Below, piece by piece: positions 37,729 to 59,747 of a stretch of 64,000 nt of DNA. Numbering within the stretch: the first letter of the stretch is position 1; each line of letters starts with the position of its first letter. The translations under genes were made by a program, and so were the position numbers. The DNA is taken from positions 124,001 to 188,000 of the forward strand of contig VXNZ01000025.1 in assembly GCA_009840355.1 (NCBI GenBank), written 5' to 3'. Origin of the DNA: Chloroflexota bacterium (GTDB lineage Bacteria; Chloroflexota; Dehalococcoidia; Lucifugimonadales; JADFKI01). The notes beneath the pieces were generated by a model. It made no database searches, was not told the origin of the DNA, and was given only the letters and a program-made list of their open reading frames with translations.

Positions 37729-39150
37729 TTAGCCCGCGTACAACTTCGTCCCAGCTATATCGACGATTTGGTAAGGCAAGCCGCTTGCTTTGGCGGAGCG
37801 CTGGCCGGCTCGCGTTACTAGCAGGTTCCCGCCGGTGCCGACGACTTGGCCGTCCACCATTATCGGCTTGCCCGCGACGAAGCTCATCGTCGGCTCGTTC
37901 GTCTGCGGGTCAATTACGGTGACATCCGCATCCGCGCCTTCGCTGAAGTGCCCCTTGTTTGGCAAGCCAAGCATCAGCGCGGGTGTGAGCGATAGTTTGG
38001 TCGCCATTTCAAGCGGCGATAACGCCCCGAACTTTACGAGCGCCATGCTGGTCTGTATCGCCACATTGCGCGGGTGGCAGCCGCCGTCCGTTGCAACCGC
38101 GTCCACGATGAACTCGCCGGAGTCATTCTTCGCCGTGGTCAGCTTGAACGCGCTAGACGGCAGATTGACAGGGAAGCTCACGCCGACATGCGTGTTCTCG
38201 CGCTCGTACATCGCCAGCGCTTCTTTAGATTTCAGATATACCACATGCCCGCCGCGCTGCGCGATGACAGAGGCGTATCCGTCCGCGATCGCCTGATTCA
38301 TGCCTTCACGCGTAGGTGAGTATCCGCGCTGCGCGAGGCAGTTGCGCGACACATTCGCCATCACGAATCCCTCGCCGTCGCAGCTGCCGCTTGTACCGTT
38401 TTGCACCGCGTGATACGCCTCCGTATTTAGCTGACCGCGCATATTCTCCAGTATGTCCAGCGTCTCCTCGCACTCCGCGTCCGCGTCTTCAATGACGCCG
38501 CGGCAGTACGAATTGACATGCGCCACATGCAGCCGTCCCTTGCCCACGATTTCGGGAATCTCACGCATGCCGCCCAGGTGACTGCCTGATTCGCGAGTGC
38601 CAATGTGAAATGCAACATACGCGAGTTGGTCGTTGCTCGCGCGCACCACATCGCCGGTCGTATTTGGGCTGAACGGATAGTAGCCGCCCAGAATTTTGAC
38701 GCCAAAACAGCCCTGTTTTAGCGCGCCGGAGACGATGTCCCTCGCCACTGAGGACGACGGCTCGCCCACCGGCATTGTAACCCCTGGTATAAGTGCGTAC
38801 AGGCATGCGACATTCAACCCCGCGCCTTTGCGCTTGATGCCGTCAATGAGCGTGGGCCCCGTCCCCGCCATGTCAAGCACCGTCGTAGTGCCCGCGCGCG
38901 CCAGCATCGCGTATCCCAGCGCCGGGTCCCAGTTGCGCGAGAGTCCGGCGACATGTGCGTGGGTGTCAATCTGCCCGGGCATCACCCAACGCCCGGTCAT
39001 ATCCACAATCTCTTCGCCGTCAAACGGGTCGAGGTCTGGCGCGACCCGCGAAATCAGTCCATCCTTGACGCCCACATCCGCAATGCCCTCGAAATCATTC
39101 GCAGGGTCGAGCACCGTGCCGCCGCTCAATATCAGATCGTACTTTGCCAT
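37729..39150 (-). CDS. Amidohydrolase-superfamily protein
   Basis: 473 residues from the ATG at 39150 after GGATGGGG (an ATG at 39162 is also possible). Metal ligands appear as GQIDTHAHVAGLSRNW (HxH), CFGVKILGGYYPF (carboxylated Lys), HVAHVNSYCRG (His) and VATDGGCHPRNVA (Asp). A C-terminal ADADVTVIDPQTNEP tail is typical of dihydroorotase-like enzymes. Substrate unknown; D-aminoacylase-like or cyclic-amide hydrolase activity is possible. Confidence 0.85.
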   Translation of the reverse strand: MAKYDLILSGGTVLDPANDFEGIADVGVKDGLISRVAPDLDPFDGEEIVDMTGRWVMPGQIDTHAHVAGLSRNWDPALGYAMLARAGTTTVLDMAGTGPTLIDGIKRKGAGLNVACLYALIPGVTMPVGEPSSSVARDIVSGALKQGCFGVKILGGYYPFSPNTTGDVVRASNDQLAYVAFHIGTRESGSHLGGMREIPEIVGKGRLHVAHVNSYCRGVIEDADAECEETLDILENMRGQLNTEAYHAVQNGTSGSCDGEGFVMANVSRNCLAQRGYSPTREGMNQAIADGYASVIAQRGGHVVYLKSKEALAMYERENTHVGVSFPVNLPSSAFKLTTAKNDSGEFIVDAVATDGGCHPRNVAIQTSMALVKFGALSPLEMATKLSLTPALMLGLPNKGHFSEGADADVTVIDPQTNEPTMSFVAGKPIMVDGQVVGTGGNLLVTRAGQRSAKASGLPYQIVDIAGTKLYAG

Positions 39151-39250
39151 ATCCCCATCCATCCTATTCTTCCCTGTTCATCCTATCCACTGCCGTTATG
39201 TTACACTGACACTCGCCAAGTGCAAACCGACATACCCTGCGGAGGCTGCA

Positions 39251-40123
39251 ATGACCAAGATAGGCGCGATTTTCCCACAGACGGAGATAGGCAACGACAC
39301 CGGCGCAATACGCGAATACGCTCAGACGACCGAATCGCTCGGATTCGATTTCCTGCTGGCGTTCGACCATGTGCTGGGCGCGAACTCCGCCTCGCATCCT
39401 GAATTGACCGGACCATATCGGCACACGGACGCATTCCATGAGCCGTTCGTGTTGTTCGGCTATCTGGCGGCAGTCACCGACAGCATCGAACTCGCCACCG
39501 GCATCATCATACTGCCGCAGCGCCAGACCGCGCTCGTCGCCAAGCAGGCGGCGGCGGTGGATGTGCTCAGCAACGGCAGGCTGCGGCTGGGCATCGGCGT
39601 TGGCTGGAACTATGTGGAATACGAGGCGCTCAACGAAAACTGGCGCAACCGCGGCGCGCGCTCCGAAGAGCAGATCGATGTGATGCGTCAACTGTGGACG
39701 AACGAACTCATCACCTACGAAGGCAAGTGGCACAAGATAACGGACGCCGGCATATTGCCGTTGCCGGTGCAGCGTCCCATACCCGTGTGGCTAGGCGGCG
39801 CGTCCGACCGCACAATCCGCCGCATCGTCAACATCGGCGACGGATGGATACTCACAGGACGACCGGACGACCGCGCGAAGGGGCTTATCGAAACGCTGCA
39901 CACCTACGCCAACGAAGCGGGGCGCGACATCGCAAGCATAGGTCTCGAAGGCTGGGTATCGGCAAGCATCGGTGGCCCCGACGACTGGGCGAAGGAAGCC
40001 GAAGACTGGAAGGCGCTTGGCGCGACGCATGTGTCCCTGAACACGATGCGCGCCGGTTTCGACACACCCGCAGCGCACATTGACGCCATAACCCGCTTCA
40101 AGGAAGCGACATCGGGCCTGTAA
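39251..40123 (+). CDS. LLM-class F420/flavin-dependent oxidoreductase
   Basis: 290 residues from the ATG at 39251 with GGAGG upstream; the open frame continues further 5' without meaning. Luciferase-like TIM barrel: GAIFPQTEIGND, LLAFDHVLGAN, TGIIILPQRQ, LGIGVGWNYVEYEALNENW and GGASDRTIRR. The motif set resembles F420-dependent mycobacterial-type LLM proteins. Substrate not known. It is divergent from the amidohydrolase. Confidence 0.88.
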   Translation: MTKIGAIFPQTEIGNDTGAIREYAQTTESLGFDFLLAFDHVLGANSASHPELTGPYRHTDAFHEPFVLFGYLAAVTDSIELATGIIILPQRQTALVAKQAAAVDVLSNGRLRLGIGVGWNYVEYEALNENWRNRGARSEEQIDVMRQLWTNELITYEGKWHKITDAGILPLPVQRPIPVWLGGASDRTIRRIVNIGDGWILTGRPDDRAKGLIETLHTYANEAGRDIASIGLEGWVSASIGGPDDWAKEAEDWKALGATHVSLNTMRAGFDTPAAHIDAITRFKEATSGL

Positions 40124-40136
40124 GACTAATACAAAA

Positions 40137-40176
40137 ATCCCTTCCCCCTTGACGGGGGAAGGTTAGGATGGGGGTG
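40137..40176. repeat. Best copy of the CCTTCCCC intergenic hairpin family
   Basis: CCTTCCCCC, loop TTGAC, GGGGGAAGG make a perfect 9-bp stem, followed by TTAGGATGGGGGTG. Related copies are at 7380, 12565, 31685, 32731 and 45785, with more degenerate ones elsewhere. All are intergenic, in either orientation, as for REP-like elements. Confidence 0.65.
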
Positions 40177-40219
40177 AACGATAGCGGACAGTCATCGACT
40201 TGACCGCCCGCTATTCCAC

Positions 40220-41277
40220 TTACTCATCCAGCACCAACCGTTTCTCCAGTGGAATTACCTCTCGAATTTCTTGCGGCAAGTCGTCGTATGTGTCAAGCAG
40301 TCTTTCTACCAACTGACTCCCGTCCCAGAGCCTTATCTCAAAGAACGATCGCCTATTCTCGTCAAGAACCGGCTTTGTGAATCCGCTCAAGCTAACCAAT
40401 AATCCGTAATCAGCTCCGAACCCATGCACATTACCTTGAAGCCTGTTGTAGTCAGGTATTCGTACGGGGGATGCTCCCGATTTCACCTGAACGCACAACT
40501 TAGGGCTATCGAAACCTAACGCCCCACTGCCTGCAAGTATATCCGCGCCACCATCCGGTCCTCGCTTTGTTTCCAATACCGTGTATCCTCGCTTCCAGAA
40601 TACGCGCTACCAGATATTCCAAGTGATGTTCCCTGAACCTATCTCGGACGCGGTCTAGGATGCGGTCGTTATTGGCCTCTACTAGGTTCACTCTAACCTC
40701 GTCGTCGTCCAAGTCATCAGAACTTGAAGACGGCGTAGGCGGCTCCACTACATGCTCGGCGCCAAGATAGACATTAGCGACCTGCTGAATTCGCGCTTCG
40801 GCGTTGTCTTTCCTAACCTGCGACACGGTGAGTTGAGAAGTGAATGAATTCTTCAAGTCTTGGTCAAATATCGCTCGCGGCACATCCTCAACAAGCCACT
40901 CTACCTCACGAGTGTGCGGCAAAGGCGCTTGCGATTTGTCAGGGTTATACACATAGTCCCCTGCTATCTTTCCACACATAGTCCCCTGCTATCTTTCCAA
41001 TGGCAACTACCTTCAGACGCTTGCGCGGCAAGACTATCATTTCGCCTATCTGCATGTCGTTAGCGAAATGCCAAAGTTGAGACGCTTGAGACGCTACCTG
41101 CTGCAAACTCAAGCCCTCACTTTGCCTATGAAGGTAATCGCGAAAAGCTTCGTAATCTGGGAAGTCTGCTACGCTATGCTTATGAACGAAACCAATCCCA
41201 TACACGCCCTCATTAAGAGCGAACTCTTCATTCTCGCCCATCCTGCCAGCCCTGATTATCCAAACTGCCATTTTCAA
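40220..41277 (-). pseudogene. Mrr-type restriction endonuclease, broken by two frameshifts
   Basis: Three minus-strand pieces join into one protein of about 343 residues. The N-terminal domain starts AVWIIRAGRMGENEEFALNE and holds EVEWL; the C-terminal Mrr catalytic core has GPDGGADI, then CVQVKSG, the D-x(n)-QxK nuclease motif. Frame is lost first at a 25-bp tandem duplication (40949-40998) and again by a +1 (or -2) shift near 40583-40592. Removing 25+1 bases restores one continuous frame. No methyltransferase or other restriction genes are near. Type IV-like restriction of modified DNA was the likely role. Confidence 0.8.
40949..40998. repeat. 25-bp tandem duplication inside the restriction gene
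   Basis: Two identical, adjacent 25-bp units at 40949-40973 and 40974-40998. Because 25 is not a multiple of three, it shifts the frame. Deleting one unit joins KVVAIGKIAGDYV to YNPDKSQAPL without a gap. Confidence 0.95.
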
Positions 41278-41375: not shown

Positions 41376-42473
41376 ATGACAGACAACAACGAACTCCGGC
41401 AGACTTCCCTATACGATACGCATGTATCGCTTGGCGCGCGCATCGTGCCGTTTGGTGGATGGGCTATGCCCATTCAGTACGACAGCATCTTGCGGGAAGC
41501 ACGAGCGGTGCGTTCCAATGTCGGCTTGTTCGATGTGTCGCACATGGGCAGACTGAAGATTCAGGGCAGCGGCGCGGCGCGGCTGCTCAGTCGCGTGCTC
41601 AGCGTCGGCGCGATTTCGATGCGGCCAACGCGCGCGCGGTACTGCCTTATCTGCAACGAAGAGGGCGGTATCATTGACGACTGCATCGTGTATCGCAACG
41701 GTGAGGAGGACTTTCTGCTCGTGCCTAATGCGGCGAATACCGCCACGGTCATAGACTGGCTGAATCGATGGAATACGCAGCCGGATACGGTCAGCATCAC
41801 GAACATCACCACAGAGACGGCGATGATTGCGGTGCAAGGTCCGCAGGCGATCCCGATGCTGAACGGCATCACTGCGGACGACATCTCAGACGTGCTGCCG
41901 TTCCGCACGGCGACGACGCAGATAGACGGCGTGGAAACAATGCTGGCGCACACCGGCTACACGGGCGAAGACGGCTTCGAGCTCATCGTTCCCGCCGAAG
42001 ACGCGCCGCGTATATGGTTGCGCCTAGTCGAGAGCGGCGCGGCGTCTTGCGGGCTTGGCGCGCGCGATGTGCTGCGGCTCGAAGCGGGCTTGCTGCTGCA
42101 CGGCAACGACATGAGCGTGGATGTCAACCCATACGAGGCAGGTCTGGCGCGCTTCGTCAACCCGGACAGGCGCGGCTATGTCGCACGCGAAGCGTTGCTG
42201 CGGGCGCGCGACGAAGGCGTAGATAAGTCCCTTGTCGGCTTCTTCATGACAGGTCGCGGTATCGCGCGGCACGGGCACAGCATATACCACGAAGGCGAGT
42301 GCATAGGCGAGGTTACGAGCGGCAGCCCTTCGCCGCTGCTTGACAGAAACATAGGCTTGGGATATGTTGCTGCTGACTTCTCGGAGGTTGGCACGCGCCT
42401 GCAAATTGACATCCGCGGCCGCCTAGTTGACGCTGAAGTTACCAGCCTTCCATTCTACATACGGAGCATATAG
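41376..42473 (+). CDS. gcvT: Glycine cleavage system aminomethyltransferase (T protein)
   Basis: 365 residues, normal length. Starts LYDTHVSLGARIVPFGGWAMP, with FDVSHMGRLKIQG and the folate-binding segment HTGYTGEDGFELIVP. It moves the methylene group from H-protein-bound aminomethyl to tetrahydrofolate, releasing ammonia. First gene of a four-gene operon; only 2 bp separate it from gcvH. Confidence 0.95.
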   Translation: MTDNNELRQTSLYDTHVSLGARIVPFGGWAMPIQYDSILREARAVRSNVGLFDVSHMGRLKIQGSGAARLLSRVLSVGAISMRPTRARYCLICNEEGGIIDDCIVYRNGEEDFLLVPNAANTATVIDWLNRWNTQPDTVSITNITTETAMIAVQGPQAIPMLNGITADDISDVLPFRTATTQIDGVETMLAHTGYTGEDGFELIVPAEDAPRIWLRLVESGAASCGLGARDVLRLEAGLLLHGNDMSVDVNPYEAGLARFVNPDRRGYVAREALLRARDEGVDKSLVGFFMTGRGIARHGHSIYHEGECIGEVTSGSPSPLLDRNIGLGYVAADFSEVGTRLQIDIRGRLVDAEVTSLPFYIRSI

Positions 42474-57750: not shown

Positions 57751-57788
57751 CATCGATTTACCAAATGTAAGACTAAACGCCAAGTATG

Positions 57789-57818
57789 CCTGCGCCGATG
57801 CGTGACATTCGGCGCAGG
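57789..57818 (-). terminator. Hairpin after the binding-protein gene
   Basis: Perfect 10-bp stem CCTGCGCCGA/TCGGCGCAGG with a 10-nt loop, 12 bp past the stop. No T run follows, so stabilisation of the 3' end is as likely as termination. Confidence 0.5.
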
Positions 57819-57830
57819 TTTGACTCGCGG

Positions 57831-59747
57831 CTATCTATCCAGCCACACATAGTCCCACTTGTGCAGTTCGTAGTTCGAGTAGAAGTCGCTGTTCGCAGGC
57901 ATCAAGCCCTTGACATGGTCCCAGTAGCCCCAGTAGGTAATCTCGGTTGTGTCGAGGGGCACCCAAGGCATTTCCTGGTCGAGGAAGGCTGCCAAGTCCT
58001 TGGACATTTCAATCTTCTTCGCCTGGTCCAGCTCTATTTCCAATGCCCTGAGCATCTTGTCGAGCTCGGGGTTGTCGTAGAACGCGGTGTTGCCATCGCA
58101 AAGCCTGTCGCCGCAGCGTCCGAACAGGTCCTTGATGTAGAAGGACGGGTCCGGGATGAACGCCCAAGTGCCACCCTCGACGGACATGTCGTAGTTTCCT
58201 GCCTTAATTTCTTCGCCATGCGCCGACACATCAACCACGCGGATCTCGGTGTCAATGTTCAGCCCTTCCTTCAGCATTGCCTGTATTGCCGGCGCTCGCT
58301 GGCGCTGGTTGATTGTTTCGCGTGTTACGAGATCAAGCTTCGGAATGCCCTGTCCATCGGGGTAGCCCGCCTCGGCAAGCAACTGACGCGCCTCGGCGAT
58401 ATCTTCCTCGGTCGGATTGCGGAAATACTTTCTTTGCTTCAGCTCTTCCAAGGGCAATCCGTAAGGCGTGCCGTCCGTGAACCAGCCGCCGCCGAACAGC
58501 GTAGCCTTTATATCGGCTGTAATATCCAGAAGCACTTGCTGATCGAGAACCAAGGCGACTGCCTGTCGCACGCGCTTGTCGTCGAAAGGCTTTCGCAAGT
58601 TATTCATCGGGATGCCATGCCAGATAAGCAGGTGCTGGCGTATGCCGTTCAGCCCGGGCCTGTTGCCGATGTCTCTGCCGTCTTTAGGCGCCATCCACAT
58701 CGTCCAATCCGTTTGGCCTCCCAGAAGAGCAGCGGTGTTCTCAGGCGTCCACGCCTTCAGCCAAATATGCTCTATCCTGTCAACGTATGGCGCATCGGGG
58801 CTCCAGTAGTCAACATTCTTTTCCATAATCCACTGGTCATCGTTCCTGGACACATACTTGAAGGGTCCTGTGCCGGGGTGGTTGTCAACGCCTCGGAGAT
58901 TTCCGTTGTGCTCTTCGAGGGTTTCCTTCTTGCTTACGAGGTTCCACTCTGTGGAGAAGGCGACCATCATGTTGGCGAGCGCGCGCGGTTCGCTAAGCTC
59001 GAACTCAACAGTGTAGTCGTCGGGCGTGTTGACGGCGGATACGTTGGGGAACAATGGCCTACGCAAGCTGACAAGTTCCTCGCTTGGGAAGATTATCCTG
59101 TCGTAAGTAGCCTTGATGTCCTCAGCAGTCAAGTCGCTGCCATCGTGGAACTTGACGCCCTCTCTGATGCTGAATGTGTATGTCAGCTGGTCGTCGGAAA
59201 TGTCCCACCTGTACGCCAAGTCCGGCACTACAGGCACATCCGATGTGCGCGGGTCGCGGCGCAGCAGGGCATCGTACATCGGCGACTGCACGCCGTGGTT
59301 GGCGATTGTGCCGGATGCGTACCAGTCGAAGTGCGCGGGTGGTCCGTGCGCGCCGGCGCGGAATGTGCCTCCGGACTTCGGGAACGGGTCCAGCGGGCGC
59401 ACATAGAAGACCTCATCGGTCGGGCTTGGTGTGGCTATCACCACGCGCTCTATGGGGACTTCCTTGATTACCTCTTTGGTAATTTCCTTTACGACCTCAA
59501 CCTCAACCTCTTTCACCACCTCAACTTCTTTGGGCACTTCCCTGACGACCTCAATCTCGACCTCTTTCACCACCTCAACTTCTTTCGCCACTTCGACTTC
59601 CTTCACCACCTCTTCCGTCACGACCACAGTCTCAACGACCGTAACCACTTGCGGCTCGGCGGCGCCGCAAGCCGTCACTGCCAGCATAGCCGCCATAGCG
59701 CCGAATAGAAGCCATATTGCCGATTTCGTTTTCCGCAAACCTCGCAT
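57831..59747 (-). CDS. Peptide/nickel-type ABC transporter substrate-binding lipoprotein with repeat stalk
   Basis: 638 residues from ATG 59747 after GGGAGG. Lipobox MLAVTAC. Residues about 30-105 are an extended Val/Glu/Lys repeat (VVKEVEV, KEVEVVKEV and variants) forming a likely rod between lipid anchor and ligand domain. The rest is a family-5 extracellular binding protein (GGTFRAGAHGPPAHFDWY; DDQLTYTFSIREGVKFHDG). Ligand unknown: peptides, sugars or metal chelates are all possible. No ATPase genes are nearby. Confidence 0.92.
   Translation of the reverse strand: MRGLRKTKSAIWLLFGAMAAMLAVTACGAAEPQVVTVVETVVVTEEVVKEVEVAKEVEVVKEVEIEVVREVPKEVEVVKEVEVEVVKEITKEVIKEVPIERVVIATPSPTDEVFYVRPLDPFPKSGGTFRAGAHGPPAHFDWYASGTIANHGVQSPMYDALLRRDPRTSDVPVVPDLAYRWDISDDQLTYTFSIREGVKFHDGSDLTAEDIKATYDRIIFPSEELVSLRRPLFPNVSAVNTPDDYTVEFELSEPRALANMMVAFSTEWNLVSKKETLEEHNGNLRGVDNHPGTGPFKYVSRNDDQWIMEKNVDYWSPDAPYVDRIEHIWLKAWTPENTAALLGGQTDWTMWMAPKDGRDIGNRPGLNGIRQHLLIWHGIPMNNLRKPFDDKRVRQAVALVLDQQVLLDITADIKATLFGGGWFTDGTPYGLPLEELKQRKYFRNPTEEDIAEARQLLAEAGYPDGQGIPKLDLVTRETINQRQRAPAIQAMLKEGLNIDTEIRVVDVSAHGEEIKAGNYDMSVEGGTWAFIPDPSFYIKDLFGRCGDRLCDGNTAFYDNPELDKMLRALEIELDQAKKIEMSKDLAAFLDQEMPWVPLDTTEITYWGYWDHVKGLMPANSDFYSNYELHKWDYVWLDR

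What the first reader, a model, noticed from the sequence alone, without database searches (positions are those of the whole stretch)
40220..41277. Restriction endonuclease inactivated by an exact 25-bp tandem duplication plus a second frameshift
Seen: two identical adjacent 25-bp units at 40949-40998; removing one restores continuous coding. A second +1 (or -2) shift near 40583-40592 separates the DNA-recognition half from the Mrr nuclease core. Inference: slippage or replication error inactivated a Type IV-like enzyme recently, since the rest is intact. Such duplications are reversible, so phase variation of the first lesion is conceivable, but the second shift argues for loss.
Basis: partly seen in the sequence, partly recalled or inferred. 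Interest (0 to 1): 0.52.

Follow-up and report, generated by a model that had tools for sequence, protein, structure and literature searches.

The report
Broken modification-dependent restriction enzyme gene
A bacterial gene for a DNA-cutting defence enzyme that probably recognises chemically modified DNA has been broken by two small mutations; a related species keeps an intact copy at the same place, and other relatives have lost or broken theirs differently, so this is ordinary gene decay in a common kind of defence gene.

Summary
On the minus strand at 41277-40220 one gene lies in three frames. An exact 2 x 25-bp tandem copy sits at 40949-40998, and about two bases are missing near 40587-40590 compared with two sister genomes. 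The three fragments match consecutive parts of one PADLOC profile, PDC-S02 (a candidate defence family). A same-genus genome (G004) has an intact 350-aa orthologue at the same site, between a luciferase-like gene and gcvT. Its predicted structure is a YTH/EVE-like modified-base reader fused to an Mrr/MspJI-type nuclease, i.e. Type IV-like. The second shift lies inside the nuclease domain, not between recognition and nuclease halves. Another sister (G003) carries a decayed copy with different lesions; G001 has an empty site; G002 has an unrelated ORF there. In the order-restricted clade 4 of 10 copies are broken, each differently. Relatives carry one copy of the 25-mer region, and the two shifts do not cancel, so nothing supports phase variation. 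Best reading: lineage-specific loss of a solitary modification-dependent nuclease at a site with turnover. Raw reads could not be checked, so an assembly error in either lesion is not excluded. Ordinary; low interest.

The parts
40945..41277 (-). Fragment 1 (110 aa): start of the gene, N-terminal part of the YTH/EVE-like recognition domain; leaves frame in the duplicated 25-mer
   Evidence: matches PDLC04815 (PDC-S02) 1-102, E 5.7e-25; 62% identity to G004 residues 1-103
40506..40979 (-). Fragment 2 (157 aa): rest of the recognition domain, linker and first helix of the nuclease domain; leaves frame near 40587-40590
   Evidence: matches PDLC04815 91-221, E 2.3e-31; G004 residues 81-225
40220..40576 (-). 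Fragment 3 (118 aa): rest of the Mrr nuclease domain with the GPDGGxD and QVK motif
   Evidence: PF04471 Mrr_cat 1.4e-15; PDLC04815 228-342, E 6.6e-44; 76% identity to G004
40949..40998 (.). Exact tandem duplication, 2 x 25 bp
   Evidence: one copy at this place in G003 and G004
40587..40590 (-). Second frameshift: two bases fewer than in G003 and G004
40140..40177 (.). Copy of a dispersed repeat 3' of the broken gene; its stem-loop is terminator-like on the gene's strand
   Evidence: 21 copies at up to 3 mismatches in the own genome, reversed control 0; terminator-like site 40162-40140
39263..40123 (+). Luciferase-like monooxygenase gene, convergent neighbour; left border of the variable site (ORF is 38696-40123; the relatives' protein aligns from about 39263)
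   Evidence: PF00296; present in all 5 genomes of the genus
41376..42473 (+). gcvT, divergent neighbour; right border of the variable site
   Evidence: PF01571 and PF08669; orthologue found in all 8 genomes of the family, in G002 only its last 45 residues at a contig end

Best explanation
The stretch is a pseudogene of a solitary, single-protein modification-dependent restriction nuclease: an N-terminal YTH/EVE-like domain that would read a modified base in incoming DNA, and a C-terminal Mrr-type PD-QxK nuclease that would cut near it. In this lineage a 25-bp tandem duplication broke the reader domain and a two-base loss broke the nuclease domain, so no full protein can be made. The gene sits at a site between a luciferase-like gene and gcvT whose content differs within the genus (intact, decayed, absent or replaced). 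The loss is one of several independent losses. Shown by sequence: the lesions, the homology, the intact orthologue at the same site, and the different lesions in relatives. Inferred: that the lesions are real DNA and not assembly errors, that the ancestral protein read modified DNA, and that loss was neutral or mildly favoured.
For: Three fragments match consecutive parts of one profile. Intact 350-aa orthologue in G004 at the same site. Two sister genomes agree on one copy of the 25-mer and on the two extra bases. Independent decay in G003: in-frame TAG at codon 4, a frameshift near residue 62, and loss of sequence after about residue 247. Empty site in G001, with 26 nt between the flanking genes. 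Replacement in G002 directly after the lux stop codon. Predicted structure of the G004 protein: pLDDT 88, pTM 0.69. Residues 1-162 are YTH/EVE-like (YTHDC2 with m6A DNA Z 10.6, VcaM4I Z 9.7) and residues about 190-339 are AspBHI/MspJI nuclease-like (Z 13.6 / 12.3). G003 and G004 show no exact tandem in the gene.
Against: Reads were not available, so either lesion could be an assembly error. All catalytic motifs remain and the fragments have no further stops, which would also fit an intact gene with two assembly errors. The NG86 ratio against G004 is low (N 0.22, M 0.36, C 0.08), i.e. there is no sign of long relaxation.
Confidence: 0.82

Rival explanations
1. Assembly artefact: the gene is intact and one or both lesions were made during assembly of this draft genome (57 contigs).
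For: The genome is a draft of 57 contigs; the coding fragments are otherwise clean and purifying selection is visible.
Against: Two independent lesions would both have to be errors. No pile-up of 25-mers or of other frame-breaking exact duplications in 464 kb of the same genome. No second stretch of the window is split in this way by eye in the ORF map. Relatives decay the same gene by other lesions.
Confidence: 0.13
2. Phase-variable gene: loss or gain of one 25-mer by slippage switches the enzyme on and off.
For: An exact, short, adjacent duplication that shifts the frame can revert (general knowledge).
Against: A single copy at this place in G003 and G004. One short tandem (8-mer, L116) among 80 related genes at unit 8 or more, none in G003, G004, G169 or G198. 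The second shift is not cancelled by the first.
Confidence: 0.03
3. Split gene: the three overlapping ORFs are translated separately and the domains act together or alone.
For: Fragments overlap (40979/40945 and 40576/40506) and each has a start codon.
Against: Breaks fall inside both folded domains, not between them. 76 of the 80 best relatives are read here as one uninterrupted full-length frame (L105, L113 and contig-cut L161 are not, and L163 starts late, at G004 residue 17).
Confidence: 0.02

Closest known systems
PDC-S02 (PADLOC-DB v2 candidate defence family, profile PDLC04815)
   Same: Full-length profile match of the G004 orthologue (E 3.9e-110) and consecutive matches of the three window fragments
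   Different: Window copy is broken; the immediate neighbours (lux-like, gcvT, gcvH, gcvPA) are metabolic, not defence genes
EVE/YTH-PD(D/E)XK fusions proposed as Type IV restriction enzymes (Bell et al. 2020, PMC7641849; section 9 and passages read)
   Same: Same two-domain architecture by predicted fold
   Different: Whether this subfamily is in their set was not checked; modified-base binding untested
MspJI / AspBHI
   Same: C-terminal Mrr-like nuclease fold, Z 12.3 / 13.6
   Different: Their reader is an SRA-like domain at the N-terminus (PMC12707154 passage, for MspJI)
VcaM4I (EVE-HNH; PMC7897488, abstract start seen in listing)
   Same: N-terminal EVE-like reader, Z 9.7
   Different: HNH nuclease instead of an Mrr-type nuclease
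E. coli Mrr (winged helix-Mrr_cat; PMC12707154 passages)
   Same: Mrr_cat nuclease
   Different: Winged-helix N-terminal domain; the own genome has an intact protein of that type (Mrr_N-Mrr_cat, 314 aa)

Membership tests
PDC-S02 (PADLOC) | Match to the family profile over its length | tested here: met
   G004 protein residues 1-341 to PDLC04815 1-337, E 3.9e-110; window fragments match 1-102, 91-221 and 228-342
PDC-S02 (PADLOC) | One uninterrupted protein | tested here: not met
   Three frames in the window; met in G004
PDC-S02 (PADLOC) | Anti-phage activity | not testable with these tools
   PDC systems are described as not experimentally validated (PMC10855318 passage)
Mrr_cat nucleases (PF04471) | Profile score above the curated cut-off | tested here: met
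   Fragment 3: 57.8 bits against cut-off 21; G004: 68.6 bits
Mrr_cat nucleases (PF04471) | Catalytic D and QxK residues | tested here: met
   Fragment 3 reads GPDGGAD and CVQVK; D237, D241 and K261 invariant and Q259 nearly invariant in 60 relatives. That these are the catalytic residues is recalled, with PD-QxK named in PMC12707154
EVE/YTH-type modification-dependent restriction enzymes | PUA-superfamily (EVE/YTH) reader fold fused to a nuclease | tested here: met
   Predicted model of the G004 orthologue; no Pfam match for the N-terminal fragment
EVE/YTH-type modification-dependent restriction enzymes | Cleavage that depends on a modified base | not testable with these tools
   Needs purified protein of the intact orthologue
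Phase-variable restriction genes | Repeat copy number varies between relatives or cells | tested here: inconclusive
   One copy in G003 and G004, two in the window; no strain-level reads

The most novel reading that the evidence does not exclude
In this order-restricted clade of EVE/YTH-Mrr nucleases the gene is inactivated again and again (4 of 10 copies, four different lesion sets, against 0 of 17 copies outside the clade). This would reflect a recurring conflict between a solitary modification-reading nuclease and the host's own changing DNA modification, with the window's 25-bp duplication as the first step of one such loss.
Probability: 0.12. Interest if true: 0.42.

Novelty: new member of a known kind. 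Interest (0 to 1): 0.2.

Why it matters
Pseudogenes of restriction enzymes are common, and this one is ordinary. Its modest value is comparative. One site in one genus shows the gene intact, freshly broken, decayed, absent and replaced, so it is a small worked example of how a solitary modification-dependent nuclease is lost. Whether such losses are driven by conflict with host methylation could be tested on more genomes.

Tried and rejected
Phase variation: rejected for want of any copy-number variation or repeat tract in relatives. Compensating frameshifts: +25 and -2 both shift the same way and do not cancel. Own-methylation conflict as the driver: PF01555 matches in the genomes with broken copies were 16, 7, 12, 15 (G000, G003, G169, G198) and with intact copies 38, 8, 12, 24, 34, 38 (G004, G190, G191, G196, G199, G230), i.e. 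fewer, not more, where the gene is broken (Mann-Whitney p 0.20); PF00145 matches 1, 0, 0, 5 against 1, 1, 2, 1, 2, 1. So no support, on a tiny sample. One-copy descent of the shared site: G169 (another family of the order) has the gene at the same lux side, but in the tree it groups with genes at other sites, not with the genus (95/93), so whether the shared place is descent or repeated insertion is open. Rfam matches around the gene: none at gathering level. Solved relatives by sequence: none convincing. NCBIfam: no match. Paper search for Mrr with incompatibility and inactivation terms: 0 papers.

Left out or dropped: the alignment used for the model holds 60 of the 80 loci; the tree holds 47 rows (22 of the 80 loci, 10 rows, the 13 order rows, the window and G003). 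The 0 of 17 count uses 5 order rows outside the clade and 12 full-length rows (contig-edge rows G277 and G564 and the partial G515:C35 dropped). Many partial rows were not inspected, so broken copies outside the clade may have been missed.

Full report
The observation. The minus strand at 41277-40220 carries one gene in three frames: 110, 157 and 118 aa. An exact 25-bp tandem pair occupies 40949-40998. It is far beyond chance: in 50 random 1700-mers with the window's dinucleotide make-up the longest exact tandem unit was 8. The unit is found nowhere else in the own genome at up to three mismatches. DNA alignment to the two sister genomes that hold the gene, G003 and G004, shows one copy of the 25-mer region in each, and two more bases than the window near 40587-40590. 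The two lesions do not cancel.

What the gene is. The three fragments match consecutive parts of one PADLOC profile, PDLC04815 / PDC-S02: positions 1-102, 91-221 and 228-342. The last fragment is Mrr_cat (E 1.4e-15). G004, of the same genus, has an uninterrupted 350-aa orthologue; its record is an uncultured Dehalococcoidia MAG. The predicted structure of that orthologue (60 sequences, pLDDT 88, pTM 0.69) has two domains. Residues 1-162 resemble YTH and EVE modified-base readers (YTHDC2 with m6A DNA Z 10.6; PH1033 Z 10.3; VcaM4I Z 9.7). Residues about 190-339 resemble the AspBHI and MspJI nucleases (Z 13.6 and 12.3) (Foldseek AspBHI E 1.8e-6). EVE-PD(D/E)XK fusions have been proposed as Type IV restriction enzymes (PMC7641849, section 9). 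PDC systems are described as unvalidated candidates (PMC10855318, passages). That the protein cuts modified DNA is therefore inference.

Where the lesions fall. The duplication lies at G004 residue about 103, inside the reader domain. The two-base loss lies at residues 224/226, between the first nuclease helix (213-224) and the next strand (228-231), inside Mrr_cat (209-320). The catalytic motif (GPDGGxD, CVQVK) is kept.

The site. In the window, G003 and G004 the gene lies between a luciferase-like gene and gcvT, convergent with the former. In G001 these two genes are 26 nt apart. In G002 similarity to the window stops at the lux stop codon, and a 354-aa ORF without a match at E 0.001 in Pfam, NCBIfam, PADLOC or PHROGs follows (one PHROG of unknown function at E 0.0087); the contig ends before gcvT. 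In the other genera of the family ftsH is next to gcvT at this position (the lux side is seen only in G007). In G169, of another family, the order is lux, this gene, ftsH, gcvT.

Independent losses. G003's copy has an in-frame TAG at codon 4, a frameshift near residue 62 and no sequence after about residue 247, and lacks both lesions of the window. G169 has a frameshift at residue 318/319, next to a short G run in a long-contig assembly, so possibly a sequencing error. G198, a one-contig genome, has a nonsense TAG. A tree of 47 rows puts the window, G003, G004, G169, G190, G191, G196, G198, G199 and G230 in one clade (100/100) with a long stem. Four of these ten are broken. Outside the clade 0 of 17 full-length copies of the same class are broken (Fisher p 0.012; 0.032 without the window). 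This comparison is post hoc, and partial rows outside the clade were not inspected. Of the 80 best loci in named genomes (a ranking that favours intact copies) 77 are uninterrupted, L105 (= G169) has a frameshift, L113 one in-frame stop, and L161 is cut by a contig end; by this count L163 is uninterrupted but aligns only from G004 residue 17.

Rivals. Assembly error cannot be excluded without reads, but 464 kb of the same genome show 13 exact tandems of unit 12 or more with no pile-up at 25, and two errors in one gene would be needed. Phase variation has no support. A methylation conflict as the cause of loss is not supported by methyltransferase counts.

Verdict. Observation confirmed; interpretation partly supported. 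It is a pseudogene of a Type IV-like nuclease of a known kind at a site with turnover.

Noticed in passing
window 40140-40177: Dispersed 38-mer repeat with a stem, 21 copies at up to 3 mismatches in the own genome (12 forward, 9 reverse; reversed control 0), here terminator-like 3' of the broken gene.
   Followed up: partly
L069:1704-2768 (minus strand): 354-aa ORF in G002 at the place of the broken gene, without a match in Pfam, NCBIfam or PADLOC; one PHROG of unknown function at E 0.0087.
   Followed up: partly
L072:689-2305: 538-aa protein of the own genome with an N6_N4 methyltransferase domain followed by an Mrr_cat domain.
   Followed up: no
L071:1887-3728: 613-aa protein of the own genome with an Mrr_cat_2 domain and a long run of ankyrin repeats.
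   Followed up: no
L128 and L130: Nearly identical homologues in MAGs labelled Chloroflexi and Gammaproteobacteria (end branches 0.0007 and 0.044): transfer or mis-binning.
   Followed up: no
window 59473-59612: 54-bp repeat (about 2.3 copies, with an 18-bp sub-period) at the end of the 640-aa ORF 57786-59708.
   Followed up: no
own genome (G000): 40 matches to the luciferase-like monooxygenase, i.e. a large paralogue family.
   Followed up: no
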